Positions 9,357 to 60,672 of a DNA stretch of 64,000 bases are shown piece by piece; positions within the stretch are counted from its first letter, which is position 1; each line of letters starts with the position of its first letter. Source of the DNA: Melieria omissa (taxonomy: Eukaryota; Arthropoda; Insecta; Diptera; Ulidiidae); contig OZ020269.1 of assembly GCA_963971225.1 (NCBI GenBank), positions 39,887,264 to 39,951,263 of the forward strand, read 5' to 3'. The notes beneath the pieces were generated by a model. That model saw nothing but the letters and a program-made list of their open reading frames with translations. It had not been told where the DNA came from and did not search any database. The position numbers and the translations under genes are program-made.

Positions 9357-10069
9357 GTAGTTATGGAGACAATGTTAAAGTAAAGCTGCCTAACGAGTAT
9401 GATTTTGTATTTCACTTGAAATTTCCGGAAAGCGCTCTTATAATTGTGACCGCAGATAAGTCAAATCCTGGATTCGTAAAAATTAATCTAACCCAAGTTT
9501 TAAAAAGGATTGAAAATCAAAAGCATCATTCGGAAACATATAAATGTTTGAAAAAATGGGTTACAAGGGAGAATTATCTCATAGTCGAGAATTTACAATC
9601 GTGGTTGCATAGTTGCTTTATAAAAGCATTAAATGATTTGAGCTATATAATTACGGCCAATGGACAATCATCAATCCTCAAGTATCAGCACTTAGGCCCA
9701 GCACATACTATAACTGTTTTGAGCCCAAACAAGTACTCAGTGGATTTCGTTCCAGGTATACTGCTTAATTGCAAACAGGCAGTCTTGCAAACAGTTAACT
9801 GCAACTGGGAAGCTATTCCGAAGCCTTTAAATAGAAGTCAATCGAAAAAGACTATAATATTTCGGACTTCATATTATATTGCTGAGCATGAAATAATTAA
9901 AGATAAATATACCTTAAAGTGTGCTTTGAGAATGCTGAAAAAATTTCGAGATGCACACCCCAATATGAATAACTTAAAAAGTTATTATATAAAAACCCTT
10001 TTTCTGTGGAAAGCTGCTAAAGAAAACTGCAGTTTTTGGCAACAAAGCCTTAGCGTGGTACTAATTGAG
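9357..10069 (+). CDS. cGAS-like receptor (cGLR / Mab-21 domain), internal exon with catalytic core
   Basis: cGLRs are nucleotidyltransferase-fold innate immune sensors that make cyclic dinucleotides to activate STING. The exon opens, using one base from the previous exon, with GSYGDNVKVKLPNEYDF. This closely resembles the cGAS active-site segment, with the GS loop and the metal-binding Glu and Asp of NEYD. The third acidic residue is in KYSVDFVPGILL at about 9738-9773. Later come FRTSYYIAEHE and LKSYYIKTLFLW, typical of Mab-21 family C-terminal lobes. The vertebrate zinc-thumb Cys/His cluster is absent, as in insect cGLRs. The exon has no stop and is bounded by TTACAG at 9351-9356 and GAG|GTAAGT at 10067-10075, ending in phase 0. 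The N-terminal part lies upstream and was not found. The exact family member is not assignable by eye. Confidence 0.88.
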
Positions 10070-10174
10070 GTAAGTGTTATTACAAATAAGATTATCCAAC
10101 TTACCCTGCGGGACACTGATGCTCACTTGACTCATTTGACTATCAGTGCTGATCAAAGTGGAACAAATGTAGAA

Positions 10175-10383
10175 TAGCGAACACTCATGAAAAAAAAACG
10201 GAAAATTTGGCCATATAGAGCGTATTTTTGTGAATTTAACAAACTAAAAATTTGTTCGATATGGGTATCAAACGAAAGGTCTTTTTCATACCTTTTTATT
10301 AATGCTAATCACTAGACACGTAAAATGCACTAACAAAAAGCTAAAAAAAAATTTTTTTTTATAAAAATTTTTTAAAAGCAGAC
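10175..10383 (+). repeat. Left part of an older repeat split by the BEL provirus
   Basis: With the continuation at 16040-16130 this matches the reverse complement of 27867-28225. Shared blocks include ATAGCGAAC-C/A-CTC, ACAAACTAAAAATTT, GATATGGGTAT-AAACGAAAGGTCTT and, after the BEL element, GTTACCATATTGTAGCCTGTGAAATTCCC. The BEL provirus interrupts the alignment with its 5-bp TSD. Confidence 0.65.
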
Positions 10384-10640
10384 TGTTCGGGATTTGAGTG
10401 GCAGCGCCGGCGTAGCGGTCTAGCCGTCAAGTGTATTGCGCAGCGGCGGCGCCATCTGCCAGGCGTCCTATTCGGTCAAACGGCGCTGCCGTGTAGCTGT
10501 CAGTCGATTAAAATTGATTTGTGAGTTCTTTTGTTCTTCTCAATAAAGCAGCCGAGCCGAGTAGACGTTTTCTTAAGTTGGTGCTTCCTATACGGTCGGT
10601 TTTGGTAATTTGGACACAAAGCGCTATTTGGCGCGCAACA
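10384..10640 (+). repeat. 5' LTR of BEL/Pao element
   Basis: Starts TGTTCGGGATTTGAG and ends GGCGCGCAACA. AATAAA sits at about 10542. It is followed by TAATTTGGTGCCTCCTGTGAGG, where the primer-binding site is expected; I did not assign the tRNA. Confidence 0.95.
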
Positions 10641-10677
10641 TAATTTGGTGCCTCCTGTGAGGATCTTCGATTTCGGA

Positions 10678-13222
10678 ATGGCGGAGCTCAATCTTCGGGC
10701 TACGATGCAGAATGCCATAAAACGTTCCTGCACTCGTGTCCAAGACAGCTCATTTTTGGCAGACATTGTGGCGGTGGAGCAAGAGAAGCGAAAATTGGAA
10801 ACGTACTACGTGAAATTCGTTCATAATCATGACATATTGGTGGCTAAGGCGACGGCAGTGGAACTATCGCAACATGAAGAGCTGGTTATTCAGGTAGAGC
10901 AGTTATACGACGAGGCGCGCGTCGCGTTGGACCGCGCATTACAAGGTGCAGAAAGGAGTCGCAAAAGTGAGGTTAAGTCGCTTCAAGTTAGTGGTTGGGA
11001 AGCGCAAGGTGGTGAATTGAAATTGGATCCATTGGGGATCCCTACCTTTGACGGTGCATTACATAATTGGTTGGCGTTCAAAGACGCATTTGAAACACTT
11101 GTCCACAATCACAACTTGCCCGAAGCTTACAAGTTGGGTAAACTGCGAGAGTCAATCAGTGCAGAACAGGTGCCGCTAGTGGGCGGTATGTATTCAGGAG
11201 GTTATGAAGAGGTGTGGGCGGCGCTAAAGGCGAGGTATGACAGGCCCAATTTGTTAGCTGATGGACACGTGTCTCGTTTTATCAACATGGCGGCGTCCGC
11301 ACAAGAAACATCTTCGGTTTTGTTACACGTGGTCGACACTGTTCGTGAATCATTTCGCGCTCTTCGTGTTATGCAATTACCGGTGGAGGGTTGGGACGTC
11401 CTTGCCGTGCCCATCATTATACCAAAGTTGCCCTCCACAACTCAGCACGCTTGGGGAATGAGTCTGGTGAACAACGACATTCCAAAGTTGGAAGATTTGC
11501 TTAATTTCTCGGAACGGCGAGCGCATAGTCTTAACAATAGCAAGGCGTGCCAGAATCCTCCGCGTTATTCAGTGCGGCGTGATCACACAGCTACGATGCG
11601 GCCGGTGAGGTCTCACCTTGCCGTGACGGACGACGGAGGATGCCATTATTGCAAGCAGCCTCATCGGATCACTCGGTGCCCACAGCTGGTGGCGCTTACA
11701 GTGACTCAACGTTTTGACTTTGCGAAGAGCTTGAAGCTCTGTTTCAATTGCCTGCAGCCCGGTCATTCGGCACAACGGTGTGCATCAGGCAATTGTCGAA
11801 ATTGTGGTCAGAAACATCATACTTTGTTGTGTCGTGCTCGAATCGAATCGGTTAACCCGCCAGTGGAGATGCCGCTGGTCGCGCGGTCAAACCTCCAGCC
11901 ACCTGCGCTGAGCCCACACGTGACGATGATGGCGCAGTCAAACTTCGTCAACCGAATTGTTTTGCTGGCTACTGCCACGGCTCAGGTCACGGTTGCTCAT
12001 CAGGAGGTTACGGCACGACTTTTGTGCGATCCAGGCTCACAGATGAGCTTCATATCAGAACGCTTGGCTGATCAGTTACGGCTGCGCAGGGATCGGTGCA
12101 CATTAACAGTTGCAGGCATTGGGTCAACCCCTCCGTTGCAGGCCAAGGGTATTGCTCACCTGCAGCTGGCTTCCATTTACGGGGATTTCTCCTTTCCATT
12201 GGATGTGGTGGTCTTGCCAACAATTGCGTCCGCCATGCCAGCGGTGACAGTAGATATACAACAGTGGCCACATTTGCGAAAGTTAAAGCTAGCAGATCCA
12301 CATTTCGGAGTTCCTGGGTCGGTTGATATATTAGTGGGTGCAGATGCTTGGGGTCAAATTGTTGAGAGCGAAATCATTAGACGACGACCGGATGAACCAT
12401 ATGCGCAGCGGACAAAGCTCGGATGGGTGGTCTTCGGTCCTGCCACTGCCACAGCAGGCGTCGAGTATACACAGAATTTACATGCTCAAGCTAACACTAT
12501 AGACGACCATTTAGACGACATATTGCAGCGCTTTTGGCAATCGGAAGAGGTTTCTCCCCCGGATGTTACAGACGACGCATGCGAAGACTATTTCATGCAC
12601 CATCATTCTCGTACGCCACAAGGGAGGTACGTAGTAAAGCTTTTGTTTAAACGTGATCCAGCATGCCTTGGGGATTCGCATCAGATGGCTCTACGGCAGT
12701 TTTATCAGCTCGAACGACGCCTCATGAGGAATCCAGAGATGCAGCAGAAGTATTTGATGTTTATGCGCGAGTACGAACAGCTGGGACACATGGTGCGGGT
12801 AGAGAAATCGAGGATTGAAGAGCAGAGCTATTATATACCCCATCATGCTGTCATGAGTAAGTTCCGGGTGGTATTTAACGCATCCGCTAAAACGTCGAGC
12901 GGCGTCTCACTGAACGACATACAGATGGTGGGTCCAACAATGCAGTCTCCGTTAATCAACATACTTTTCAGATTCCGTCGATATCAATTTGCTTTGACGG
13001 CTGATGTAGAGAAGATGCTCCGCCAAATCATGGTGGCCCCGGAGCATCAGAACTGGCAGCGCGTTCTTTGGCGCGAGGCGCCCCACGAGACTCTTCATAC
13101 ATATCAATTGACAACTGTTACTTATGGTATGGCTTGCAGCCCGTACAATGCGGTTCGGACACTTAATCAGTGCGCGGCTGACAACAGTAATTTGGTGGAT
13201 TCCCAACGAGCGGAAATACGAA
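10678..13222 (+). pseudogene. BEL/Pao Gag-protease-RT (first part of polyprotein)
   Basis: The first ATG in good position is 10678 (MAELNLRATMQ...). The N-terminal half is a DUF1759-type Gag with GIPTFDGALHNWLAFKDAFE. Three zinc-knuckle-like segments follow: CHYCKQPHRITRC, CFNCLQPGHSAQRC and CRNCGQKHHTLLC. The protease has CDPGSQMSF where most relatives have D-S-G-S, so a Pro sits in the active-site triad. The RT fingers and palm are present up to VTYGMACSPYNAVRTLNQ, with the first catalytic Asp in LTADVEKM. A single-base slip just before about 13222 moves the YVDD box into another frame; the original frame runs on to a stop at 13345-13347. Confidence 0.88.
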
Positions 13223-14834
13223 GGATGTCATATTGTCGTCATTTTACGTCGACGATTTTCTTATTAGTTGTGGAACTCGAGTTGAAGCAGTGCAATTGGC
13301 CGCCGACGTGGAAACCGTGCTGGGCGCTGGCTGCTTCAAGCTCCTAAAATGGAACTCTAACGACGTTGAAGTCTTGCGGTCGGTCCACCCCCCAGACCCT
13401 TCTCAACGAGAACTGGCGATTTACGCGGACGTCACAACCGTACTCGGACTTCGCTGGGATCCAGTACTAGACGAATTTCTTTTCGATGTTTATCTTAAAT
13501 CCGATGAGGTATACCCTACGAAGCGACGAGTGCTGAGCGACGTAGCACGATTATTTGATCCTACTGGTCTACTAGCTCCCATCATCATATCCGGTAAGAT
13601 TTTTATTCAATCCCTCTGGGCGGCCGGTCTAAGTTGGGACACACCATTACCTGACGATCTCAGAAATACATGGATTACGTTTTATTATGGATTGAAATCT
13701 CTCAACAAACTGCGAATACCTCGTTGGCTAGGAATGTTGACTGACGTCATTCCCACTCTTTACGGCTTCTGTGACGCTAGTCCTAAAGCGTACGGGGCCG
13801 TGATCTACGCTAAAACGATTGATGCATATGGGCACATTCGTGTTGGCCTGATTACAGCCCGGACTCGAGTCTCGCCTCTCAAAGGCTCTACTATTCCCCG
13901 CCTGGAATTGTGTGCAGCGGAGTTGTTGGCGCAGACTTTGGATAACGTTCGCAAGGCATTAAATCTGTCGGACGCACCCTGCCTATTATTTTCTGACTCT
14001 CGTATTGTACTGTGCTGGATTCGCAAGTCTCCAACCACACTGAAGCCATATGCAGCGAATCGCGTTAGTCACATTCAGCACCTGACGCCGGTGGACTCGT
14101 GGTATCACATTCCGTCCGAACAAAATCCTGCAGACTGCGCAAGTAGAGGATTGTCTTCGCAGGAGCTCTTGAATCATCAGCTGTGGTGGAAAGGCCCAGA
14201 TTGCATATACTACGACCAGTTTACTAGAAACCAAACCAACATTACACTAAATGGAGAGGAATTCGGCGAACTACAGCGTGAAACAAAGGTGGTTGCTCTT
14301 GTTGCACAATCTTCGTCCCAATTGGCCATCACTATTCGGACGTCATCGGGCATGCTTATCCCTATACTTGAACGGTTCAGCAACATACAGCGACTTCTTC
14401 GAACCGTGGCGATAGTTCTCCGTTGGAACCCGAACCGCCGCAGCTACTGGCGGCAACCAGTAATCATGGCTCCAGAGATCTACTACGCTCACATGATTTT
14501 GGTACGTATGGTACAATGCACTTTCTTTTCGACAGAGTTGCAGTGCCTGAGGTTGGGAAAACCATTGCCAAGTCACAGTTCGCTTCTTTCATTGGATCCT
14601 TTTTTGGACAAGGATGGCATGCTCCGCGTGGGCGGTCGCCTGTCGAAATCGGCTCTTCAATATGAGCAACAACATCCTCTCATTTTGCCACGACAGGATC
14701 CCCTAACTCAGCTCATTGTTAGGCGCATCCATCAAGAGACGTTGCACGGTGAAACTCAATTAATGCTCCAGACCCTGCGTCAACGATATTGGGTTCTCAC
14801 ATGGCATCTCTACCCAAACAGCGCGTTCGTGTAA
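13222..14834 (+). pseudogene. BEL/Pao RT palm, RNase H and linker (second frame)
   Basis: The frame carries KDVILSSFYVDDFL (RT catalytic box), then FDPTGLLAPIIISGKI and WDTPLPDDL, hallmarks of the BEL Pao_A-type region. RNase H follows with YGFCDASPKAYGAVIY, FSDSRIVLCWI and HIPSEQNPADCASRG. The frame reaches the first half of the integrase zinc region (HQETLHGETQLMLQTLRQRYWVL) and then falls out of phase, stopping at 14832-14834. Confidence 0.88.
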
Positions 14835-15817
14835 CCCGACCATTTTTAGCTGCTGGAGTAGACTATTGCGGTCCATTCACATTGCGAGTCGGCGGTCCAC
14901 GCTCAAGGACTACAACGAAGACTTATGTAGCGATATTTGTTTGCATGGCCACCAAGGCGGTGCATATCGAGGTCGTTGAAGACCTCTCAGCGCACGCGTT
15001 CCTAGACGCATTTACACGTTTCGTCAGTCGCCGTGGGCGCTGCCGCGAACTATTTAGTGACAACGCGACAACTTTCCACGGGGCTAACCGGTTGCTGAAG
15101 GAAGACTTAGCCGAATGGACATCTCAACGCAACCAACAGGAATTAGCAGACAATGGCACAACGTGGCGGTTTATTAGCCCCAGGTCTCCCCATCAAGGTG
15201 GGCTGTGGGAGGCAGCCATAAAATCGGCCAAGCGACACCTAGTTAAAGTTGTTGGCACCCAAAATTTACGATTCCCGCAGATGCAGACTCTCATGGTACG
15301 TATTGAAGCTTGTCTCAATTCGCGACCGTTGATCGCACTACATGACGGCCCTGATGATCGCCTGGCTCTGACACCGGGAGACTTCCTCGTTGGCGAACCA
15401 CTCCTGGCGATCCCAGAACCAGTTATCGCCGATGTTCCCCCATCAAGATTGAAACAATGGCAATGGTTACGCAGGTTACATCAAGAGTTCTGGCATCGAT
15501 GGAGTGACGAATATCTAACGACACTACAGACCCGTGGAAAATGGCAGCGGCGTTCCGATGACCTCCGCATTGACGATATCGTGGCTATCAAGGAGGACAA
15601 TCAGCCACCTTCCCAGTGGCGTCTTGGCCGAGTTATAGCAGGTCATCCTGGTGAAGGGGGACTCATCCGCAATGCTACAGTGAAGACCAAATCAGGCAAC
15701 TCCACCCGGGCAGTCCAGAAACTTTGCCGCCTCTTGTCGGAGACAGAATTCGAACCGGGTGGTCCGACCGGGCAGGATGTTCGGGATTTGAGTGGCAGCG
15801 CCGGCGTAGCGGTCTAG
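14800..15817 (+). pseudogene. BEL/Pao integrase core and tail (third frame)
   Basis: The D,D,E core is complete: GVDYCGPF, then LFSDNATTFHGA, then PHQGGLWEAAIKSAKR. A DUF5641-like tail (RLHQEFWHRWSDEYL...WRLGRVI) follows. The stop is at 15815-15817, inside the 3' LTR. Between YWVL (second frame) and MASLPKQRV here, about 25-30 codons expected to carry the Cys-Cys half of the H2C2 zinc site are missing. Confidence 0.88.
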
Positions 15818-16034
15818 CCGTCAAGTGTATTGCGCAGCGGCGGCGCCATCTGCCAGGCGTCCTATTCGGTCAAACGGCGCTGCCGTGTAGCTGTCAGTCG
15901 ATTAAAATTGATTTGTGAGTTCTTTTGTTCTTCTCAATAAAGCAGCCGAGCCGAGTAGACGTTTTCTTAAGTTGGTGCTTCCTATACGGTCGGTTTTGGT
16001 AATTTGGACACAAAGCGCTATTTGGCGCGCAACA
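15778..16034 (+). repeat. 3' LTR of BEL/Pao element
   Basis: Reads the same as the 5' LTR over all 257 bp. It is preceded by the purine-rich GACCGGGCAGGA and followed by the TSD copy CAGAC. Confidence 0.95.
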
Positions 16035-16039
16035 CAGAC

Positions 16040-16130
16040 CAAAGCATAATAAAGCTGCAATGAGTTTGTTACCATATTGTAGCCTGTGAAATTCCCTTTA
16101 TAATGAAATATAAAAATGTTTACTTTTGTT
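16040..16130 (+). repeat. Right part of the older repeat split by the BEL provirus
   Basis: Contains GTTACCATATTGTAGCCTGTGAAATTCCC, matching 27885-27917 in reverse complement. It continues the repeat begun at 10175. Confidence 0.65.
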
Positions 16131-16164
16131 GTTTTTCAATATATATTTTTAATTTTTTATAACT

Positions 16165-16478
16165 TGATCTTTGGTTCAAAGTAATTTCGTAGTCATCTTC
16201 GCCATCACTTTCGGCCATATTAAAAAACGTTTTCAAAAGATCCTGATTTCTAGCTTTACATTCTTTAAGAAGCATAAACTTTGGAAGCTAGCCATCGACA
16301 AAATTAGAAGTGTTGCACAGTTGCAAAACATGGCCATTACTGCACCAATAACTACCTTCGCGGGGTATTAATTTCCACTCCATTAACTTTTCAAGGACGT
16401 TTTCGCTGATCTCAAAAGCCTCTTCACTTTTAAATAGCTGGTACAATTTACAAAGAGATTCATGTGGTCCATATTGAA
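16165..16478 (-). pseudogene. Possible transposase N-terminal fragment (IS1595/Merlin-like zinc region)
   Basis: On the minus strand one frame reads QYGPHESLCKLYQLF, then LEKLMEWKLIPREGSYWC, then NFVDG, followed by a TAG and more acidic codons (MAESDGEDDYE). The pattern W-x-LIP...C...GH..L...DG resembles the zinc-ribbon start of IS1595/Merlin-type transposases. The match is short and has a stop, so this is tentative. It could also be an unrelated pseudogene. Confidence 0.35.
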
Positions 16479-16568
16479 ATAAAAATTAAAATTTGGGATA
16501 GTTTCGAACTAAAAAGCACACTTATATCCTTCGCTTATCGTTCAACGGTACTTTTCTACACTTATATT

Positions 16569-17981
16569 CAGGCCCGACGAGAGGGGGGTGGTAAAGGTGG
16601 GATTCCCACCGGGCCCGGAGTTTCTAGCGGGGCCCCGATTTCAATCGAAATCTCAAAATTTGGGAAAAGTTTAATATGCACTTTTGCAATCTGATTCTGA
16701 CACACGGTGGGCTGCAAGAATCGATGGTGTGAAACCGTTTGCAAAGAATCTTCCTGGATTGAGAAAGTCTCTTGAAGAAATCAAAAAACTGAATCTGACC
16801 GCAGAAACTCTTCGGGACGTCAATGGCATTCTAAAATACATGAGTACATTTGAGTGTGTCTTGATGGCTTCCATTTGGTTCAAAATTCGTCAGGCTATTA
16901 ATGAAAGAAATCTGGTTCTTCAAGAGATGAACGCTACCATTGACGTTGAAGTCGACAATCTTCGAAGTTTACCGACTTGCAGCTTCTACGCGACCAGTGG
17001 AGTGGAATTCATAATGAATGCAAAATCGTCGCCGACAATTTCATACTTCATCCATTTTACGACCAGCCTGGAAAAAAAACGTGTTGACTCGTCACATGAT
17101 ATCCTCAATGAAGACTGCACTATTGAAGAAATCGATTTCAAGAGAAACACTTTTTTTGTCATAATCGATTCAATCATGAGTGGAATAAGTAGAAGATTTC
17201 AAGCTATAAATGAACTGAATGAAACATTTTCATTTCTGTGGCAGTTTTCAGATACAAACATTCAAGAATGTCAGACTGCTGCAGAAAAATTTGCAGTCAA
17301 ATATCCTGCTGATGTATCTCAAAACCTATCAAATGAAATTATACACCTCAAGAATATATATGAAGCAAATTTTGGACCTCAACTACCGCCATTCGATTTA
17401 CTCAATGCCATTTATGCGAAGAAATTGAACAGACTTTTCCCAAACGTTTGCATCGCTCTGCGTATATTTTGCACGATTCCAGTATCTGTTGCGAGTGGTG
17501 AGCGGTCATTCAGTGTTTTGGCAAGAATAAAAAACTTCCATCGGTCCTGCTCAACCCAAACTAGAGTGTCAGTCTAGCTACTCTGTGTTTGGAAGCACAA
17601 CTGGCCAGAGAATTAGATTTTGAAGAGCTCATCAACTCGTTCGCTTCAGCTAAAGCAAGGAAAGCTCACTTATGAATAATCATTTGTGCAATATCGTTGA
17701 ATTTTATAAAAAGTAATACCTTTTCTTATATTAAAATGATTTATTCAACAAATATTCATTGTAAGATCATAAAAGAAATTCTTTTTCCAAGTATTTGTAT
17801 TTTTATTTCTTGATACTATCAACTCGACCACTATATGTACATATTCTATTCTGAGATAATTTATTTATTGTGTGGCACGAGTTTACAACTTTTATGGAAC
17901 AGAATAGAAGTAAAGGGTTTAGGGTGGGGGGGGGGGCGGAGGTAACTACCACCGGGCTCTGATATCCTCTCGACGGCCCTG
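16569..17981 (+). mobile_element. hAT element, internally deleted
   Basis: TIRs are CAGGCCCGACGAGAGG and CCTCTCGACGGCCCTG. The 8-bp TSD CTTATATT is perfect at 16561-16568 and 17982-17989. It carries the C-terminal part of a hAT transposase but lacks its N-terminal zinc finger and catalytic start. Confidence 0.95.
16684..17675 (+). pseudogene. hAT transposase C-terminal fragment (ZMYM/TTF-type group)
   Basis: The frame opens with SDTRWAARIDGVKPF, a typical internal hAT motif. It ends in the dimerisation domain CTIPVSVASGERSFSVLARIKNFHRS. A frameshift near 17565 puts the last residues (LATLCLEAQLARELDFEEL...) in another frame, ending at TGA 17673-17675. Intact members of this group run to 600-800 residues, so half is missing. 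The upstream boundary is an internal deletion close to the left TIR. Confidence 0.85.
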
Positions 17982-17989
17982 CTTATATT

Positions 17990-18404
17990 CTTTGCAGGAA
18001 AGTATTAAAGTATTAATCTACCTTTTGTGTGGCCGGCCTTTTGCCGGGCTGCAAAAAATAACCCTCATGGAAGTAACTGGGGCATCAGGTTCAGTAAGAA
18101 GTGTACAGTATTTTTATATTCAATTTCTACGATTGGAAGATATCGCGCTTAAGTGAAAGTTGTTCATAAACGCCATTTCAATATTGCAGGCAGATTCTTT
18201 TAAACCTCAAAAAAACTCACACATAAGATGTTCGGGTGATATTTCACCCATATGGTACTTTGCATAGTTTTAATTAATTTGTTGACCAATTATCATATAA
18301 TAAAAAAGAATTTGCTATCTTTAATCTTTGTTATCTTACAGATAAATAAGTTAACAAATTTTTCCATAATGTTTTGCAATTAGGGCAACTAGATTAGGTT
18401 ATTG
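17990..18404. other. Intronic sequence, no gene
   Basis: Nothing coding was seen. It contains one copy of the near-palindrome GGGTGATATTTCACCC at 18234-18249, which recurs at 25609 and 27786. Confidence 0.5.
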
Positions 18405-18560
18405 TAGCTGCCTCTGTAAGAGACACACTTGAAGGCCTATTAGGAGACCCGTTGTGATATACCACAAATTTCGCCCGTTTTTAAATGTGTATGTAATACT
18501 GTTTTTCGAACATATGTTTCAGCACTCATTTCAATCGGATGGGGAAAGGGGGTAAGGAAG
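18405..18560 (-). repeat. SINE 3' fragment, second copy of the 40607-41009 family
   Basis: GCTGCCTCTGTAAGAGACAC, CCCGTTGTGATA-ACCACAAATT and TTTCAATCGGATGGGGAAAGGG match 40624-40765 with small differences. The tRNA-like head is absent here. Confidence 0.65.
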
Positions 18561-18734
18561 GGCAGTAGTTAACTAAAACTTTGTGTTCACCACAAGTATA
18601 CTTTTTTTCAAGAATTGCAAGCAGAATATGCCTCTCGATCGTGTTTGATACCAAATTGGCGCCGTGTTCCAATAGTTCTTTTACTTTTTTTACGCTCTGA
18701 TTTTCTGACAAGGTTTGCAAAAATGGCTGTATTG

Positions 18735-19430: not shown

Positions 19431-19439
19431 AAATAAAAT

Positions 19440-23587: not shown

Positions 23588-23630
23588 ATTGTAACAAGCC
23601 GAAACACAAAATAGAATTACAATGTTGGAC

Positions 23631-28225: not shown

Positions 28226-28235
28226 ACTGCATTTA

Positions 28236-49735: not shown

Positions 49736-49861
49736 CAAAGTGTAATTTTGTAAATAAAGTGATTGTTAGGTTTACTACGTTTGCGCTGAATAATTGCAGT
49801 TGTTTTATTTTCAACACAATCAAAACGAACCTTGGAAGACGAGCTTGGAATTTTCGTAACA
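49736..49861 (+). repeat. 5' LTR of gypsy copy 2, right part
   Basis: Continues from 44517: CAAAGTGTAATTTTGTAAATAAAGTG...GGAATTTTCGTAACA. It matches 52593-52718. Confidence 0.9.
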
Positions 49862-49928
49862 TTTGGTGTCAGAGGTTCGGATTGTGTTGGTGAAGATTAA
49901 AAAAAAATAAAATTATAAAAATCCAGAC

Positions 49929-50618: not shown

Positions 50619-50628
50619 ATTTATTAAT

Positions 50629-51585
50629 GTGAAAGTTGAGCACCTAGAGACGCGAGTAGAACATTTAGACAAACGAGTTGACAGTCTGGAGGATTCAATA
50701 AACAGAAAAATCGACGAGCGGCTTAAAGAGGTACAGCTGCGAGCAAGGGTGCAGTCGGTTGAGGAAAGTTTTGCCATAGCAGTGCCTACTTATGATGGCA
50801 CTACGTCGTTCGACACATTGAAATTACAATTCAATATGGCTGCTTTGAATAGTCAGTGGACCCATGTTAGGAAAGGTCGGAGACTGATACTGGCTCTAAG
50901 AGGTCCTGCGGCTGAGGTAATAAAAACAGTTCCGGAAGGTTTGAGAGGTGATTACGAGACCGTCATAAGGGCGTTGGCAGCCAGATACAGTGACGAGCAC
51001 AACAAAATGCTGTATTATTGCGAGCTGAAGAACCGCAGGAAACAAACAGTCGAGGCGCTGCAGACATATGCAGCAGACATTGAGCGGCTCGTACAGTTGT
51101 GCTACCCGAAATTCGGCGCTGATGACCTCGAGAGGATGAAGATTGAGGCATTTATTGAAAGTCTTCATGACCCAGAGACAGGACGCAGTGCATTGATGAT
51201 GGGCAAGCCGACATTCCGTGAGAAGGTGACAAGCGCATTGACGTATGAGGCCACCTGGAGGGGAAGTTTTCGACAGTCACCTGCGGAAAGGCGTCGAGCC
51301 CAATCTGGACGTGTCACGCAGAGCCAGACAGTGAGCTCGGTGGCACCAGCGGGGCTGCGGGCAGTGTCATCTAGAGTCAGTTGCTGGCGATGTGGCAAGC
51401 AAGGCCACATATCACGAGACTGTCATCTGCGAGAAAAGCGTTCCGGACAACAGACGTCGCCAAGAAGGGCTGACGCTCTTTCACATCATTCGTGCAAAAC
51501 CGAGCGCAGGCATAATTCGCAAGCCGAAAACGAGGGACAAATTGTGGATGTTCGGTCGGTAAGAGTTGTGCAAGATGAAGATTGA
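50629..51585 (+). pseudogene. Gag capsid and nucleocapsid part (gypsy copy 2)
   Basis: Begins VKVEHLETRVEHLDKRV (heptads) then a capsid region TYDGTTSFDTLKLQF...LALRGPAAEVI...LQTYAADIERLV, typical of gypsy Gag. The CCHC knuckle CWRCGKQGHISRDC follows at about 51385. The frame then runs directly into sequence matching the integrase N-terminal linker (VRVVQDED), stopping at TGA 51583-51585. The jump marks the loss of protease, RT and RNase H. Confidence 0.85.
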
Positions 51586-52302
51586 CTTGCGGGAAGGCTA
51601 CAGAAGGACCAGCGCAAGGATACGGATCTCGCGAAGATCATCAAAGGCAAAGCTCAGAGATGACGGCCGGACTGGCAGGAGATGGCTGATGAGAGCCCGA
51701 TCACGAAGGCTTACTGGGCACAGTGGCAAAGTCTACGTCTGAAGAATGGCAGCCTATATCGCGAGTGGGAGAGCAGGGATGGCAGGACCAGAAAATCCCT
51801 AATAGTGGTCCCGAGAGGCCGAATCGACGATGTCATCGAGGAAAACCATAACGACTCCAGAGGAGGGCACCTAGGCATCGCAAAAACTGTCGCCAAGATA
51901 AGAAGGCGGTTCTATTGGGTAGGATGCCAGGAGTCTGTCGCTGAGTGGATCAGAGGCTGTGATCGGTGTTCGGCTTCGAAAGGGCCGAGGAGAAGATCGC
52001 GGAGCCGCACTCAACTAGTTGAAAGCAGGTTAACGGCGAGCTATGGTCTACGGGCTAACCCATGAGGGTTCCAGGAAGGCAATCTGGTAATGCTTTACAA
52101 CCCACAGCGGAGGAAAGGTTTATCTCCAAAACATCAAACATCATGGAAAGGACCGTACAAAGTCGTGACGAAGATTAATGACGTGGTGTACAGAGTTCAA
52201 CGCTGCAGCAGCAGACACGCAAGGTTGAAAGTAGTCCATTTGGAGAGCCTGGCGTCTTACTCCGGCGGAGTCTCGATACTTGTTCCGAATGAACAAGTCT
52301 AA
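51586..52302 (+). pseudogene. Integrase zinc domain fused by deletion to integrase tail (gypsy copy 2)
   Basis: LQKDQRKDTDLAKI, then HNDSRGGHLGIAKTVAKI and CDRCSASKGP give the H2C2 domain. The catalytic core is missing: at about 52010 the sequence jumps to SYGLRANP, a stop, then YNPQRRKGLSPKHQTSWKGP and the C-terminal end at TAA 52300-52302. The tail is intact here and shows what copy 1 lost near 3569. Confidence 0.85.
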
Positions 52303-52313
52303 GTGATGGGCAG

Positions 52314-52718
52314 TGAAACGAAAAGGCACTTTGTGCTGTGCATGAACGCTTTTGCAAGCATACTTTTGCGGCAAACTGGTATAATTCGCTTGGTATAGTC
52401 CGATATGGCAAGGTTCGCGAGAAATGGGCTGTGCGAGAATGGTCGAGCATTTTCCAATTGGAAGTTGCAAGAAACTTCGGCGCGATAAGAAAACAGGTAT
52501 AAAAAGCAGCAGTGTGCAGCGCAGAGGGTCGAGTCTGTGTTGAGCAAGCAATGGGAAAACGTGCAATAGTAGTAGTGTAAAGTAGATACAAGCAAAGTGT
52601 AATTCTGTAAATAAAGGGATTGTTAGTTTTACTGCGTTTGCGCTGAATAATTGCAGTTGTTTTATTTTCAACACAATCAAAACGAACCTTGGAAGACGAG
52701 CTTGGAATTTTCGTAACA
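52314..52718 (+). repeat. 3' LTR of gypsy copy 2
   Basis: It is 405 bp from TGAAACG to CGTAACA, after the purine tract AAGTGATGGGCAG. The TATA region GGTATAAAAAGCAGC is at about 52497. The TSD copy ATAT follows. Confidence 0.92.
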
Positions 52719-52731
52719 ATATCTTATGACG

Positions 52732-53111
52732 TCCGTACGAACACAAACGAATGAATTTCGTTCGGTATGGTAGATTTTTTGCCAAGACAATTACTTTTTA
52801 CTGCATTTTTCGCAAAAATACATATCGTCTGTCATAATCAAAGTCAAAACTTCTATTATTTGCACATAAAAAATGCTGAAAAAGAAAATAAAAAAAGTAG
52901 AACTTCTCACTAACCCTCTTGACATTGAAAATTCAGACAGCTCTGGTATCAATCAGCTGACAACTTTCACAAATGAAATAGACATTGACAAATAAAATAA
53001 ACAAATTCACAAATTAAATAAATTTTCACAAATATGAAAACCCAGACATTCTTAGACTGTTGAGAAGGAAAGTGGTTTTCATATAGTAAAGGGGCTATAA
53101 GAAACCACACA
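52732..53111. other. Intronic sequence, no gene
   Basis: Homology to the P-like copy stops at about 52731. Nothing else was recognised. Confidence 0.5.
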
Positions 53112-53113
53112 TA

Positions 53114-54295
53114 CACTAGTCAGAATAAGTTTGCGTACAGGCAAGTCTAAATTATGTTATGATTAATTTTGACCTCAAAAATGGGTTCTCTGTTTATAAA
53201 AACGTATCCACATTTTTCATATATGCCTTAACTGAACTTTTTGTTCTGTTTTAGATGAATTAAAATAATAAGTTTTTAATCTACCCGAGCAAGAGGATTA
53301 GATTGTTTTCGGTCAGTGCATCATAATCTAAGGCTAGTTGCATTTAATATCTTCAGAAATGTACAGAAATGTTTCATAAAACCAGTAGCAGTGACTTTAT
53401 AAGAATAGTCCTGAAAAAACATATTTCCCTTACATATTAGCATGTAAGAAGCCCATATTTAGCTTACTTACAAAGAGCAAAGAATTGCTTTCGTAAAAAA
53501 GTCCATCAAAGAGTCTATCTATAGAAAATTGGACGATACATTATTATCTGATAATGGTTTGGCATATTTGGCATTAAAAGGCATCAACTAATGTGAAGAG
53601 GAACCTGTTAATAACAAAAATCAAAAATTAACAAGTGAGAATAGCATATGTGGGGATATGGTATGGGGCTGCATGTCAGGAAAAGGAGTGAGCGGCTGTT
53701 TTTTTATTCAGAAATACTTCCGAGGGGTTATTTACATATTCTAAGAGCTTATGTAAGCCAAAAGTTCTTTTCAACCTTAGGGCGCAATGCATACGATGTG
53801 AAGCTAGGTTTGCTATTAACTGGCTCAACAAAGTTGACAAAGTTCCTCTCAAGTCACCTAACGTGCATCTAATTGAGTATATAAGGGGTTTACTTGAGCC
53901 CTGAGCCCAACAAGACTTCATCTTCAAAGATATACTAAACGCTGAAAAAACACCGAATTTAATCAAATTTACGCCGAAACTTCTGTAGGGAGTTCAAGCG
54001 AGAAATGCAAATTCACAAAGTTATTAATTTTTGGACAAAGCTTAGTTTCAATTAAATTTTAACTACATAACCTTATCTTGTACGCAAACTTTTTCTGAGG
54101 TGAATTCATAAAATCTTTTTTTTTGCCCTTCTTTTACAGTTTGGTCAAGTTTTTTATATTATTATCTTAATAGAATAAAGGAACTAAGTTTACGGAAGAA
54201 ATAAAAAATGTTTTGGTTTTGAAAAATTACTTTAACCGATTTATTTTTCATATGAAAAAACTACGTACCCCTTGTAGAACTTATTCTGACTAGTG
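53114..54295 (+). mobile_element. Tc1-like element, degenerate
   Basis: TIR CACTAGTCAGAATAAGTT on both ends, flanked by TA (53112-53113 and 54296-54297). A further inverted copy of the left end (TTGTACGCAAACTTTTTCTGA) lies at 54075-54095. The length of 1182 bp is usual for Tc1-like elements. The transposase is badly damaged. Confidence 0.85.
53640..53960 (+). pseudogene. Tc1-like transposase fragment
   Basis: One frame gives MVWGCMSGKGVSGCFF, matching the Tc1 VMVWGCxSxxGxGxL motif. After slips another gives INWLNKVDKVPLKSPNVHLIEYI, matching the catalytic SPDLNPIExxW region, in which N replaces D after P. Several stops and frameshifts are present. Confidence 0.7.
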
Positions 54296-54394
54296 TACGT
54301 ATACAAGGAGACGGCGGCGATGGGTATAGCTGTGGCTGCCCAGAAATAAATGCAGAATTTGAAAATGAAATCAAAAACCAGCTGTTGGAGTTAA

Positions 54395-55126
54395 GGGGGT
54401 GTTCTGTAGTAAAATTTTCAAAAAATCGATTTTTTTTTTTTGCATTTTTCAACAGGTAATGTTGTTATCTATCGTATAAAAAAAGGTCTTTGATGAATTC
54501 GGACCGGAAAGTCATTTGTAAAGGAGGTTTCGTCACGCGCTCCGCCGAATTTCCACAGTACTTTCAGTGAACAAAAAACTTTAAACGCGTTTTTCCCGAA
54601 ACCATGTTTTTCGAACTGGTTCACACGATTACAAATGAGTAGACGGATTTTGATAATTTTTTTTTTAAATGTTTCTAAAAAATGTCGCTATCGTCCGACG
54701 AGCGTTTTTTTCGATTTTGTTATTAGTTAGTGTTAAATAAATTTTTTTCATTTGAAAAAATGGGAAAAAAAAAAGTTGTTTACTTTCAAGTCGCGCCATT
54801 TTGAGAATTTTGATGAAAAACAAAAAAGCTCCCGTCGGACGATAATCGCACTCATATAGATTACAACAAAAAAATTTTCCGATTTCCATGTTTCAGACTG
54901 GAGCAATCGTGTGAACCGTCAACGCATGTTTTTTTGGAGGGCATCACTTTGCGGTGCTGCAGTGCAGCAACGAATCAATATTTTTCCAAACCTTATACTG
55001 AATTTTGTAGTTAAAAGTATAATAAAACATTGAAAAAAAACCGCATAAAAAAAAATTGAATAGTTACTTCACAGTAGAATTTCAAAAAACACCTAAGAAA
55101 ACGAGCTGTTACTACAGAACACCCTC
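54395..55126. mobile_element. MITE with TTAA TSD and internal inverted repeats
   Basis: TIR GGGGGTGTTCTGTAGTAA and TTACTACAGAACACCCTC, flanked by TTAA (54391-54394 and 55127-55130). A second inverted pair inside (GTTCACACGATT and AATCGTGTGAAC; CGTCCGACGAG and GTCGGACG) suggests a foldback shape. Kolobok or piggyBac type. Confidence 0.78.
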
Positions 55127-55432
55127 TTAACTCAGTTTTGGTACAACCACAGAATAAACAGTATACAGAAGGCGCATCTGAAATAATTTTGCGATTTCAT
55201 TTCAGACGCGGTCGGGAAGCAACAAAGGTGAGGAAAATGTAAAGGGAACCGAGAGAGTAAGCGCGAATTCATATACACGCATAGATTCGATGGTTTTCGG
55301 CTTTATTCCACGGGTCGGCAAAATTGACTATGAGATGGTGTTAGTGAGCGCAGTAAAATGTTTCTCCACTGTGGAAATTATACCTGAACAACGGCTGATT
55401 GAGAGAGCGTACTGTGTACGTGTGCTGAGCGT

Positions 55433-55965
55433 CAGTGCTGCCGAACGTACTACTATAGTACTATTTTACTACTATTTCATCATCTGTACTACCGTACTAC
55501 CCACAGGCCGATTGTACTACTATTTTCTGAAATATAAGTTTTAGCTATTTAATTTTCATGTTTTAGGTAAGGCTATTAGAAAAGAATATAAAAAAATGTT
55601 GCCGAACTGAACATTGCCGAAGCACGAAGTTTAGACCAATCTTGCCGTTTTTTATTTCTAACCAAATATCCTTGGTTTGTGAGCAACTGTATCACATGTG
55701 TTTTCGTATGTTTCACTTTTTACTGAATTTTTTCGATCAAGAAATTGAGCTCGTTGTAGAGATACCGTTGTGCGACTAAAGTGACAATTGCACCTTTTTT
55801 TAACCACGTTGCAAAATGCTGTTCGTACAATACTTAACATTGTTGTAATCACATAATACATATATTTAAATACAAAATAACTTAATATTTTTGAATATTC
55901 TTGTAAGAATCTTTTAAAATTTGATAAAGACAATAAAGTGGTTGTTGGAACGTCGACAAGCACTG
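55433..55965. mobile_element. hAT-type MITE
   Basis: Starts CAGTGCTGCCGAACG and ends AAGCACTG. The 8-bp TSD CTGAGCGT is perfect (55425-55432 and 55966-55973). Its body is an inverted relative of 57190-57803. Confidence 0.88.
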
Positions 55966-56052
55966 CTGAGCGTATTGCTCATAAGAGTAAGCTTTGCCGA
56001 CCGCTTCTTTATTCTCATTTCGACAACAACACGCAACGTTGTTGCTTTCCGC

Positions 56053-57803
56053 CAGTGCTGCCGTTTTTAAATTTTTTTCAGTAGTACAAATTACGATTTT
56101 TGGGTAGTATTTATGAACTTTGAGTAGTATATATGCATGTTTTCTTAACAGTGTAAAAACCGCAAGGATTCATCAACCACTAAATCAAATACTAAGTTTC
56201 AAAACACATTAACAATTTTATTTATACAAATGTGAAAGAGACAATGTAATTCAGTTAAAGAAATTCATATAAACAAATTTTATATGTTTTAATTATATAC
56301 TTAAAGTAAGTTTTTTGGTGGATCCCTTTTTTCCGTAAAAGTTTCTCCTAATAAACTTTTCGAAGATAAATCGAGTGGACAGTAGCGTTCAGTTAACATT
56401 TTCTTTTCTAGTCTTTAATTAAATTTACTTCGGACTACTATGCGGAAACGCAATTACAGTACCAATAAACTGTCAAAGAAGCGGAAACATAAATTCATTA
56501 ATATCGTGTTTTTTTCTAAAACATCCCCAAAATGGTTATAAACCAAGATTTTCGAAATTTGACTCAAGTTCCAATTTCGCAATGCCCTTTATTCCGCTTC
56601 TAGAACTTCAACATTCTGTTCTTCAATTAAATCTTTCAATTAGGGGAACTATGGTAGGAGATAAATTTTTTGGATTTATCCTTTTCAAGCACCCTTAACT
56701 AAAGTCGACCTAAGCGACTAGCTAGTAGTAATATTTGCATTACTAGTAGTAGTAGCTTTATATTTTCATTACTAGAATATGTACAATTTCCCGCCTAAGT
56801 CAGTCCGATTTATAATTATTTGTCTACGGATATACTCTATACACCCCATTTTGAAGATATTTCTATAAAAAAATAAAAAAAAACAAACAAGAGAAACCAA
56901 TCAACACCAAAACAAAACAACAAAGCACGACGAACAATATTTTTCATTTATATTTTCTTTAAAATGGCATAATTAAGAATGGGATAATTTTGAGCATACT
57001 TTGAATTGAATTTTTTAATTTAATAATTATTATTTTTTTATTAACAATCCAACGGAATTTGTCCTCAATTTGCACTGGTTGAATAAAAATGCCAATCCCA
57101 AGAGAAATCGAACGATTTTATACACTTTTATCAGCATATTCCAATGATTGCGAATTACACGTTTCAGCTCAGTTTAATTTTTTCTGACTTGTCGACGTCC
57201 CAACAACCACTTTATTGTCTTTATCAAATTTTAAAAGATTCTTACAAGAATATTCAAAAATATTAAGTTATTTTGTATTTAAATACAGTAATTTACTCTA
57301 TTATTTCACGACGTTAATTTTTGGGTATCGCATCCGTTGCGCTGCTTAAAGTTTATCACTTTATCAAAAGCTTATGTGTATTATGTGATTACAACAATGT
57401 TAAGTATTGTACGAACAGCATTTTGCAACGTGGTTAAAAAAGGTGCAATTGTCACTTTAGTCGCACAACGGTAACTCTACAACGAGCTCAATTTCTTGAT
57501 CGAAAAAATTCAGTAAAAAGTGAAACATACGAAAACGCATGTGATACAGTTGCTCACAAACCAAGGATATTTGGGTAGAAATAAAAAACGGCAAGATTGG
57601 TCTAAACTTCGTGCTTCGGCAATGTTCAGTTCGGCAACATTTTTTTATATTCTTTTCTAATAGCCTTACCTAAAACATGAAAATTAAATAGCTAAAACTT
57701 ATATTTCAGAAAATAGTAGTACAATCGGCCTGTGGGTAGTACGGTAGTACAGATGATGAAATAGTAGTAAAATACTACTATAGTAGTACGTTCGGCAGCA
57801 CTG
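56053..57803. mobile_element. hAT-type element, non-coding
   Basis: TIR CAGTGCTGCCG and CGGCAGCACTG, perfect 8-bp TSD CTTTCCGC (56045-56052 and 57804-57811). The right ~600 bp is the inverted counterpart of 55433-55965, including GTAGTACAATCGGCCTGTGGGTAGTACGG. No transposase was recognised. Confidence 0.9.
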
Positions 57804-58019
57804 CTTTCCGCAACAAGCCAGCTTGGCTTTACTCGTGCACATTGAAATGGCGGTTGATTTGGCAAAGCGATCGCCAAGACAAAATCAATAGGTAGTTGCA
57901 GCACCAGAACTGATTCAACTTTTTTCTTTGATAACACTGCACAACAGCATGTCTGTTGCATGCAGTTTTTTACATGAATCTGAATCGTTTTTCCACGCTG
58001 TTTTCAAAACCATACTCCG

Positions 58020-59010
58020 TTTTTATGTAACAGCTCTAGTTTTTGCAAAAAATGGGCGTGTCACTTTTTCGAATTTTGCTCGGCTTTTTTCTCGTTTTCG
58101 ACTGTTATTTCTTAACCAATAATCCTATCAACATTATTTTTATATCGTTGCACTTACAACATTTCACGCCATCTTTCCTGACATTAATCAATTTTATGCG
58201 TTCTAAATGGGCGTGATAATAAGGTTTCAAAGTAAGAAAATATTGAATTTCAAGGCGTTTTTTCTGATGGCGAAAATTGTACAGATGTTTCATAAATCAA
58301 GTTTCGAAGTATATGAATATCTTAAGAAGAAACATCAAGCAATACAACACAGCCAAATTATTTATCGGAATACACATTCGCGTCGAAATAATAACAAAAC
58401 TTTACCATAGCGATTTTCATCTCTTTTCATACTTTTTCCTTAAAAAATTAGGAGCCTCAAAATATGCTCTTTTTTATGTTCCATTTATAGTTTGGAATAC
58501 AAGCAAAAACAAAAATATTTTGAATTTTTCGAAACAAAAAAAAAATTAAAAACTTTGCATATTTTCAGGCCCCTAATTTTTTAAGGAAAAAGTATGAAAA
58601 GTGATGAAAATCGCGATGGTACATTTTTCCTGTTATTTCGATGCGAATGTGTATTCCGCCAAATAATGTAGCTGTGTTGTATTGCTTGATGTGTCGACTT
58701 TCGTTATACACCTAACTCGTTAATTGTTTTACAAAAAATGTGTATGTTTTTGACCATCAAAGAAAACGCCTTAAAATTACATTTTTTCCAACTTTGAGGT
58801 CCAATTACCGCGGCATTTTAACATTTATGAAAATAAGTTGCATCGGAAAAGAAGCCGTGCGGTGTTGTTAATGCGATAAGGTGAAAATCATGTGAATCGG
58901 TTTTTTGGTTTAGAAACTACGATCGAAAATATGGAAAAAGTAGAGGAAAAACTGAAAAAATGACAGGGTACCTATATCTCACAAACTAGAGCTGCTAGAA
59001 AAAATCGGAG
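58020..59010. repeat. Foldback with ~0.45-kb arms
   Basis: Arms about 58020-58480 and 58545-59010 are inverted copies: CAGCTCTAGTTT, AAGGCGTTTT-TGATGG, AAGCAATACAACACAGC, GGAATACACATTCGC-TCGAAATAA and CATACTTTTTCCTTAAAAAATTAGG. The loop is ~65 bp. No gene. Confidence 0.8.
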
Positions 59011-59621
59011 GGTAGATTCGGAATCAGCGCACCCAAATTAGTAAGAAACAGTAGAAAAACTCCATGCAACAGAAAAAAAGTGTTTTTTTGTTGCGCTGTT
59101 GCACAACATTGTAGCAATAGTTTTCCACTTTTTATCACTTTCTTAATGCGTCTTGGTTGTTCCAATATTTTTACACATATGTTAATTTTCATTGTAGCCA
59201 TTTATACTTTTTACAACATCTATTTTACAAACAGACCAAAGGAACTAATAAAATTCATTGAATTTTGGTTTTTCCGTAGTGCTACTACCTTATTTATGCG
59301 CCTTGGCGATCGCTCAATCAATTTTTCTATGCAAACTATGCCTGTCCACTTCTTGTTCTTGTTTGTAAAAAAGCAAGCGGAGAGCAAGCACGAGCCACCA
59401 CAAACATGCAAGCGGCACATTGCTTTGTTGCCCAACAACAACAACCACAGTGTGTGGTGCGCGGTCGCAGCTTCTCAGCTTACGCTCTCGCGCTCTGTGC
59501 ATTCTCGTCCCTTTTACTGCTTCCCCCGCATCTACAAACGGGTCCTACCGCTGGAACCCGCAAAGAAAATTTTCTTTACACCAGATGCGCATTCTGTATA
59601 TTGTTTGTTCTGTGGTGCAAC

Positions 59622-60473
59622 TAAGCGCTCAGTGGAAATAGGCTATACCCGTAATACTACATTTACATTGAGCTCAAATGCGTGATTTGGGCAAAAATTC
59701 TCAAATGCGAAGCCAAATCACGCATTTCCCATACAAATTCAAATCAAATGACTCATTTCAACAAAACGACGAAGAAAATGCGATAAAACATGACAAATTT
59801 TTTCGAACGCATCATAAAATGAAAGCGCCTTCAAAAGATTTTACCTCTTTTTGACAATTCAACAACAAATGACAATTACAACAAACGAAAATTATCAAAA
59901 TGGATAATTAGAATTGAATTTTCGTTTGCTTGATATATATAGATTATTCTTAGTACGTAAGGTGTGTTATACATTTGTATTTAAATATTGCAGAGTGTAG
60001 ATCATTGAGGCAGCAAAAAATTCTTTAGTCAGCAGCCGGAAAAAATGCTCTGTGAGCTGCGACAAGGACATAGGCGTTAAGCGTTTGACATTAGCTGCCA
60101 AGCAAAATGCAAATGAGGCAATCTAAATGTAAACGTAAACGTAGTATAAGTAGTTATGTTCAGAAACTACCACATTTTGAATAGCAACAAAAGCTTTAGT
60201 CGATATAAGTGCAATAAATGTGAGTTAGTTAATAAGTACAAATAGTCTTTATCCGTTATTTCTATAATGTTCTCTAAATAAAGGTATTTCCATAGACACC
60301 TAACACATTCTAATTATTCATATAATAACCTATTATTATTGACAAATTTGATTTCAGTATGTGTTACTACTTTTATCAAATATGCACTTACAATTTTAAT
60401 ACGAGATTACTCGAAACACGAATTTTCAACTCAAGTGATTGTTGCTTCTGACCGCAGAATTTACTTTTTTTAG
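59622..60473. other. Intronic sequence before the second cGLR exon
   Basis: A short inverted pair AATGCGTGATTTGG and CCAAATCACGCATT occurs near 59670-59730. Nothing coding was seen. It ends in the acceptor ACTTTTTTTAG. Confidence 0.55.
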
Positions 60474-60672
60474 ATGTTCAGGGATTTGGAGGAATGCCTA
60501 GATAAAGGACAATTGCCGTTTTATTGGGACAGCAAATCGAATTTACTTGGACTTTTGAGTCAGTCTGAAATTCATGAAATGTTCAAATATGTTCATAAAA
60601 CGAATTCCAAACTGCGGAGAGCTAGAGAACAGTTGACGCCATCTTCACAGAATGCGTTGATTTGCATTTTTT
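60474..60672 (+). CDS. cGAS-like receptor (cGLR / Mab-21 domain), C-terminal-lobe exon
   Basis: It reads MFRDLEECLDKGQLPFYWDS then NLLGLLSQSEIHEMFKYV and TNSKLRRAREQL. The pattern (amphipathic helix, LPxFYW, NLL, then a long helix) is that of the last part of Mab-21/cGAS C-terminal lobes, where cGAS has LENYFIPEFNLF. It begins in phase 0 after TTTTTTAG and ends in phase 1 at GTAAGT (60673), so at least one more exon follows. The ATG at the start is an internal Met codon, not an initiator, because the upstream sequence is a splice acceptor. Together with 9357-10069 it covers most of the catalytic domain. Confidence 0.82.

What the first reader, a model, noticed from the sequence alone, without database searches (positions are those of the whole stretch)
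9357..60672. A cGAS-like immune receptor gene split by a 50-kb transposon-filled intron
Two exons of a cGLR with intact GS, E-x-D and D catalytic residues are 50.4 kb apart. Splice sites are consensus (GAG|GTAAGT and TTTTTTAG|ATG), both phase 0, and the protein continues across the join in register with the cGAS fold. The intron carries well over 20 insertions. Whether such a locus still makes full-length transcript is open.
Basis: partly seen in the sequence, partly recalled or inferred. Interest (0 to 1): 0.9.

Follow-up and report, generated by a model that had tools for sequence, protein, structure and literature searches.

The report
Fly virus-sensor gene, transposon-swollen intron
In an unidentified fly, a gene for a probable virus-sensing enzyme related to human cGAS has an old intron that is only about 64 bases long in the fruit fly but has here been swollen to 50,000 bases by jumping genes, which raises the question of whether the full-length sensor is still made.

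Summary
Exon A (9357-10069) and exon B (60474-60672) are consecutive exons of one dipteran cGAS-like receptor (cGLR). They match complementary halves of one Pfam domain, and abut without a gap in 44 of the 59 homologues that match both. No other cGLR exon was found in the window. The intron is old: 12 of 16 homologues that match exon A only read on through a GT donor at the same codon. In Drosophila melanogaster cGLR2 the orthologous intron is 64 nt (inferred from a read-through ORF). Here it is 50,404 nt, about 790-fold longer, with at least 11 separate transposon stretches. One, a BEL/Pao element with identical LTRs and a 5-bp target duplication, lies 315 bp past the donor in sense orientation and brings a polyadenylation signal. 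The exons are intact (2 of 52 conserved positions changed in A). The first and last coding exons were not found in the window. Transcription is untested. Side finding: 18 of 34 homologues with a C-terminal tail end in a CaaX prenylation box, and syrphid homologues end in a hydrophobic tail, so this group may be membrane-anchored, like OAS1 p46; five paper searches listed no report of this. The gene itself is an ordinary family member with an extreme intron.

The parts
9357..10069 (+). exon A: 2 nt finishing a split G codon, then 237 codons; NTase core with S of the GS loop, E-Y-D and third D, plus first half of the C-lobe
   Evidence: model pLDDT 87.5
10070..60473 (+). intron, 50,404 nt, phase 0, GT-AG
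10070..10177 (+). read-through extension if the donor is skipped: 35 codons and stop
10379..16039 (+). BEL/Pao LTR retrotransposon with 5-bp target duplication CAGAC; LTRs 10384-10640 and 15778-16034 identical (257 of 257); AATAAA at 10542 in the first LTR; coding region lies in three overlapping frames
16675..17577 (+). hAT transposase fragment
   Evidence: PF05699
20505..24743 (-). P-element-like transposon: 31-bp exact terminal inverted repeats, 887-codon open frame 21056-23719; no target duplication seen; the stretch 23.9-24.7 kb inside these bounds is shared with other repeats of the window
25638..27055 (.). fold-back repeat, 476-nt arms, 95% complementary
29143..30866 (.). mariner-type fragments on both strands (DDE_3 piece below its cut-off; HTH_48 above it)
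31470..35084 (.). element with inverted ends (270-nt arms 96%, 96-nt arms 90%)
35582..38884 (-). Gypsy/errantivirus-like element, only about 2.5 kb between its LTRs; LTRs 415 matches, 3 mismatches, 5 gap positions; TACA duplication; partial Gypsy env-type frame
44589..47623 (-). non-LTR retrotransposon, endonuclease and reverse transcriptase in two frames
49899..52015 (+). partial gypsy-group element (integrase zinc finger), related to copies at the window's start and end
55433..57803 (.). element with 368-nt inverted ends, 99% complementary
58059..58965 (.). fold-back repeat, 409-nt arms, 74%
60474..60672 (+). exon B: 66 codons plus one base, second half of the C-lobe (Mab-21_C 61-101 of 102)
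60673..60678 (+). donor GTAAGT after exon B, phase 1, pointing to a further exon not found in the window
   Evidence: P0118 reads on in the same way at the same place

Best explanation
This is one cGLR gene of a schizophoran fly, of the group that includes D. melanogaster cGLR2. Exons A and B encode the catalytic core and most of the C-lobe of a cGAS-fold enzyme that would be switched on by nucleic acid (dsRNA in the active dipteran cGLRs of PMC8410604) and make a cyclic dinucleotide for STING. The intron between them is old and was probably short; repeated transposon insertions lengthened it to 50.4 kb without touching the exons or splice sites. SHOWN: gene family, exon order and phase, shared intron position, a 64-nt orthologous intron in D. 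melanogaster (from protein-level read-through), at least two young insertions. INFERRED: that the intron is still removed to give full-length mRNA, and that some transcripts end early in the intron at the sense-strand LTR signal 0.47 kb past the donor, giving a truncated protein with half a C-lobe and no C-terminal tail.
For: Complementary Pfam halves. Gap-free join in 44 of 59 homologues that match both parts, 4 extra residues in 9, 1 in 3, aberrant in 3. Adjacent columns 427|428 in a 33-row alignment. Donor read-through at the same codon in 12 of 16 homologues that match A only, one of them with a one-residue offset. The D. melanogaster read-through ORF fits exon B in a second frame for 55 codons, against at most 6 in 200 shuffles, giving a 64-nt intron. 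Conserved residues kept: 2 of 52 changed in exon A, where 20 of 31 homologues have 2 or fewer, and 0 of 6 in exon B. The model of the Lucilia homologue (pLDDT 89.8) puts the join inside helix 291-308, and its best solved match is the beetle dsRNA sensor 7lt2, TM 0.77/0.82. BEL target duplication and identical LTRs.
Against: No RNA evidence. The first and last coding exons were not found in the window. The similarity ranks of exon A and exon B over homologues do not agree for this gene (Spearman -0.30, p 0.04, over 47 homologues; -0.14, third lowest of 51 sequences), and exon B sits weakly beside the D. melanogaster cGLR2 group (SH-aLRT 84) while exon A is unresolved. With 66 residues this is weak, but it gives no support. 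The BEL insertion is so recent that intact exons do not prove present function. The joined window protein was not modelled.
Confidence: 0.85

Rival explanations
1. Exons A and B are remnants of two tandem paralogues; 60474-60672 belongs to a separate gene.
For: Some flies have two cGLRs of this group (Anastrepha P0001 and P0028). Exon A and exon B similarity ranks disagree, and their places in the trees differ weakly.
Against: Each half was found once in 64 kb, the halves are complementary to within one model position, phases match, and no partner exon was found near either. Two independent, exactly complementary losses would be needed.
Confidence: 0.06
2. The gene is dead or dying: the intron is no longer spliced, transcripts end in the BEL LTR, and the exons look intact only because the insertions are young.
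For: BEL LTRs identical over 257 nt, sense strand, AATAAA at 10542, LTR starting 315 bp after exon A. Annotated or predicted relatives that leave the protein after exon A exist (P0017, P0027, P0033).
Against: Both exon frames and all four splice sites intact; 2 of 52 conserved positions changed. Drosophila Y-linked genes with megabase repeat-filled introns are active in the male germline (PMC13370334 and PMC12965833, search listing and start of abstract only).
Confidence: 0.09

Closest known systems
D. melanogaster cGLR2 (P0111) and related dipteran cGLRs (Anastrepha P0001, Glossina P0002, Lucilia P0005)
   Same: exon A identity 41% to P0111 and 56, 54 and 51% to P0001, P0002 and P0005; catalytic residues; intron position and phase as in D. 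melanogaster; third D 113 residues after the EYD, 113-117 in P0001, P0005 and P0111
Tribolium castaneum cGLR (PDB 7lt2)
   Same: fold and motif context, including PGF where the flies mostly have PGN
   Different: 20-25% identity in the structural alignments; intron structure not compared
Giant repeat-filled introns of Drosophila Y-linked genes
   Same: transposon-rich introns inside coding genes (search listing and start of abstract only)
   Different: those are megabase-scale, Y-linked male fertility genes; this is a probable immune receptor gene whose chromosome is unknown
Horseshoe-bat OAS1
   Same: a dsRNA-sensing nucleotidyltransferase gene hit by an LTR insertion; in the bat it removed the CaaX prenylation signal (passages of PMC10683996)
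   Different: here the element sits in an intron between the catalytic exon and the rest, and loss of the tail is not shown

Membership tests
cGLR | Mab-21/cGAS nucleotidyltransferase core plus C-terminal helix bundle | tested here: met
   PF03281 and PF20266 above cut-off; the C-terminal domain is complete only when A and B are joined
cGLR | catalytic triad [E/D]h[E/D] ... [E/D] | tested here: met
   E13, D15 and D129 invariant in 20 of 20 rows
cGLR | literal spacing of 50-90 residues between the second and third acidic residue, as printed in PMC8410604 and PMC9980059 (passages) | tested here: inconclusive
   113 here, outside the printed range; but 110-119 in all 71 sequences in which the two motifs were found (window included), 117 in D. 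melanogaster cGLR2, so the printed range does not separate cGLRs as I counted
cGLR | G[S/G] activation loop | tested here: inconclusive
   S present; the first base of the G codon lies on an exon not found in the window
cGLR | structural similarity to solved cGLR/cGAS | tested here: met
   exon A model to 7lt2, E 6.1e-14, TM 0.71 by query length, 0.46 by target length; full-length stand-in P0005, TM 0.77/0.82. The joined window protein itself was not modelled
cGLR | no Zn-ribbon (insect cGLRs) | not tested
   not examined as such
cGLR | nucleic-acid-activated synthesis of a cyclic dinucleotide | not testable with these tools
   needs enzyme assay
CaaX-tailed dipteran cGLRs (grouping made here) | C-terminal CaaX box on the last exon | tested here: inconclusive
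   the last exon was looked for and not found in the window

The most novel reading that the evidence does not exclude
Many dipteran cGLRs are membrane-anchored nucleic-acid sensors: prenylated through a CaaX box on the last exon in schizophoran flies, tail-anchored by a hydrophobic helix in hoverflies, a counterpart of OAS1 p46. In this species transposons have filled the intron between the catalytic exon and the anchor-bearing end, and a sense LTR just past the donor offers an early polyadenylation site, so that transposon load sets the ratio of anchored full-length receptor to a truncated, unanchored form.
Probability: 0.12. Interest if true: 0.85.

Novelty: new member of a known kind. Interest (0 to 1): 0.5.

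Why it matters
A roughly 790-fold difference in one orthologous intron of a probable innate-immune sensor is a clean case for asking how far splicing tolerates transposon load in a gene that may be needed quickly during infection. It also led to a testable lead of wider reach: CaaX boxes or hydrophobic tails at the C-termini of many fly cGLRs. If these anchor the sensors to membranes, insects reached the same solution as vertebrate OAS1 for finding viral RNA at replication membranes.

Tried and rejected
Searched the window for the first coding exon and the C-terminal exon with 75 homologues (tblastn) and by scanning phase-1 acceptors downstream of exon B (61 candidates of 15 or more codons, recounted). 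The single candidate with C at -4 (60724-60770, ending CEFL, 51-nt intron) shows by eye no likeness to homologous tails, and one such among 61 is unremarkable; rejected. Tried to name the species from the P-like transposase (30 hits, top four 44-54% identical) and from the cGLR (top hit 50% over 98% of the query; highest 56% over 79%): not possible; probably a schizophoran fly outside the sampled families. Considered an assembly gap: no N in the window. Considered SKL endings in four Drosophila-type models (P0034, P0035, P0048, P0070) as a peroxisomal signal (recalled): by eye they look like read-through of the exon B donor; not followed. Young LTRs were not turned into years. One paper search (intron / 64 bp / cGLR2, two of three terms) was too loose to be of use.
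Full report
WHAT WAS CHECKED. Exon A (9357-10069) opens after a consensus acceptor with the last two bases of a split codon, then 237 codons, and ends at GAG|GTAAGT. Exon B (60474-60672) opens at TTTTTTTAG|ATG, has 66 codons plus one base, and ends at GTAAGT. Pfam gives Mab-21 (3.9e-33) and positions 3-59 of Mab-21_C for A, and positions 61-101 of the same 102-position model for B (1.4e-8). A search of the window with 75 homologous proteins found A and B; the best of the 827 hits elsewhere had E 0.041, and I looked at the best 60.

ONE GENE, OLD INTRON. In a search of 5.8 billion clustered proteins with the joined exons, 75 proteins matched. Of these, 59 match both A and B (local BLAST, E up to 10), 16 match A only, none B only. 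The projected ends abut exactly in 44 of 59; 9 have 4 extra residues, 3 have 1, and 3 have aberrant junctions. Of the 16 with A only, 12 continue with V at the donor position (one with a one-residue offset), eight of these with VS, which is what reading GTAAGT in frame gives; the other four (P0017, P0033, P0046, P0061) end or diverge there otherwise. Among named species this places the intron in a tephritid (P0027) and in D. melanogaster (P0115), and models of two muscid flies end at the same codon (P0033, P0046). Exon B's donor looks shared too: the unnamed P0118 reads ...KIF|CK, the window ...CIF|CK.

HOW LONG IT IS ELSEWHERE. D. melanogaster cGLR2 isoform D (P0111) and two unspliced open frames (P0115, P0116) are identical up to the donor. 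After it, P0115 runs 21 codons and then follows exon B in a shifted frame: 55 codons are compatible with P0111's exon B, against at most 6 in 200 shuffles. That gives an intron of 64 nt; I did not see the DNA. In an unnamed relative, 61% (A) and 67% (B) identical to Lucilia, the two exons come from contigs of the same length, 1,462 nt (P0053, P0118), which would leave at most about 550 nt; that they are one contig is inferred from the length alone. The window's intron is 50,404 nt, 788 times 64. These are the only two comparisons I could make, so whether long introns occur elsewhere in the group is unknown.

WHAT FILLED IT. Supported separate elements inside the intron: BEL/Pao, hAT fragment, P-like, four elements with long inverted repeats, mariner fragments, a Gypsy/errantivirus-like element, a non-LTR element, and a gypsy-group fragment. 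That is 11, plus three dispersed repeat families (copies near 24.1/39.3/43.1 kb, 24.4/39.1/41.0 kb and 44.3/52.4 kb, the last also at 61.3 kb; the 24-kb copies lie inside the P-like element's bounds). The claim of well over 20 was not verified. The BEL element is the most telling: target duplication CAGAC on both sides, LTRs identical over 257 nt, sense strand, first LTR starting 315 bp after exon A, with AATAAA at 10542. AATAAA occurs 67 times on this strand of the intron, so the hexamer alone proves nothing; its place in an LTR close to the donor is what counts. A transcript that misses the donor would add 35 codons and stop at 10177.

STATE OF THE PROTEIN. E13, D15 and D129 are kept in all 20 aligned rows. 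At positions conserved in 90% or more of 31 homologues, the window differs at 2 of 52 in A and 0 of 6 in B; 20 of the 31 homologues themselves have 2 or fewer departures in A (each held against the others), 11 have more. One of the two departures (F for N after PG) is also seen in the beetle enzyme. Exon A alone is predicted as the NTase core (pLDDT 87.5) and matches 7lt2. In the full-length Lucilia stand-in (pLDDT 89.8) the join lies inside helix 291-308, and residues 385-415 are disordered. I did not model the joined window protein.

RESULTS THAT DO NOT HELP. Similarity ranks of A and B across homologues disagree: Spearman -0.30, p 0.04, over 47 homologues, and -0.14, third lowest of 51 sequences, in a version run for 50 of the 59 homologues as well. 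The B tree (72 columns) puts B beside the D. melanogaster cGLR2 group with SH-aLRT 84; the A tree leaves A unresolved; the joined tree puts the gene in an open fork with Teleopsis, tephritids and calyptrates (37 homologues). Other isolated lineages (syrphids, outgroups) also score low, but Teleopsis (0.32) and Scaptodrosophila (0.48) do not. The printed cGLR motif spacing of 50-90 residues is not met literally (113), as in every relative counted.

A LEAD FROM THE HOMOLOGUES. I tallied C-terminal ends in 57 of the 59 proteins with exon B (P0025 and P0059, with aberrant junctions, left out). Of the 34 with at least 20 residues beyond exon B, 18 have cysteine at -4, each with I, V or M at -2 (CTIS, CSIL, CIIQ, CIIL, CRIL, CVIC, CIIF, CLIS, CCIT, CVIF, CIMS, CVIL, CTVL, CVIA, CVIT, CVIA, CCIA, CLIN): tephritids, Glossina, blowflies, Musca, drosophilids. 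At the family's cysteine frequency (1.3%) chance would give this with probability 4e-25, a figure that ignores relatedness. The 16 without: eight of the D. melanogaster cGLR2 group (60% or more identical to P0111) and the partial D. ananassae model P0054 of the same group, three tephritid paralogues, two with hydrophobic tails, one Musca autumnalis isoform, and Haematobia P0018. So D. melanogaster cGLR2 itself shows no CaaX box. Of 13 further proteins from the profile search none ends in a CaaX box; P0118 ends CKLF only because it reads through a donor. P0017 and P0069 also have C at -4 but are truncated and were not counted. Six proteins (two each of Episyrphus and Eupeodes, and two unnamed) end in a hydrophobic stretch, mean hydropathy 1.43-1.97 over 19 residues, five of them 1.6 or more; no other of 57 proteins of 330 residues or more reaches 1.2. 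CaaX as a prenylation signal, and OAS1 p46 as a CaaX-anchored dsRNA sensor, are described in PMC10854198 and PMC13372824 (passages). In searches for cGLR2 + prenylation, CaaX + cGAS-like + STING, prenylat + cGLR + Drosophila, CAAX + cGLR, and farnesyl + cGAS-like receptors five different papers were listed. I read passages of three (PMC10854198, PMC13372824, PMC10683996), where the CaaX or prenylation text is about OAS; the other two (PMC12795460, PMC12737575) I know only from title and start of abstract, which do not concern insect cGLRs. The library holds open-licence papers only. In PMC8410604 the term CaaX did not occur, nor prenyl in PMC9980059. Whether the window's gene has a CaaX box is unknown: its last exon was not found.

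JUDGEMENT. The gene is an ordinary member of a known family, and transposon-filled introns are a known kind. The size of the change relative to the 64-nt orthologue, the fresh sense LTR next to the donor and the unsettled question of full-length expression make it worth a transcript check. The CaaX and tail-anchor pattern is, to me, the more interesting by-product.

Noticed in passing
homologues P0001, P0002, P0004, P0005, P0006, P0007, P0009, P0010, P0012, P0014, P0016, P0019, P0020, P0024, P0030, P0041, P0049, P0056: C-terminal CaaX boxes in 18 of 34 tail-bearing fly cGLRs, suggesting prenylation and membrane anchoring.
   Followed up: partly
homologues P0062, P0068, P0106, P0107, P0109, P0110: cGLRs of hoverflies (four named, two unnamed) end in a hydrophobic stretch like a tail anchor.
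   Followed up: partly
window 21056-23719 (-): Intact 887-codon P-element-type transposase (THAP, RNase H, GTP-binding insertion) between exact 31-bp inverted repeats; the four best relatives are only 44-54% identical.
   Followed up: partly
window 25638-27055, 31470-35084, 55433-57803, 58059-58965: Long inverted repeats in the transcript of a probable dsRNA-sensor gene could fold into long double-stranded hairpins in the pre-mRNA.
   Followed up: no
homologue P0013 (Zeugodacus cucurbitae isoform X3): A predicted isoform starts with a transposon-type endonuclease domain joined to the cGLR at the GS exon, so transposon sequence may sit in this gene in other flies too.
   Followed up: partly
homologues P0017, P0025, P0027, P0033: Isoforms or models in Rhagoletis, Bactrocera, Zeugodacus and Haematobia leave the protein at the exon A donor, by read-through or another exon.
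   Followed up: partly
homologues P0034, P0035, P0048, P0070: Several Drosophila-type models end in SKL, a peroxisome-type tripeptide (recalled), probably by reading through the exon B donor.
   Followed up: no
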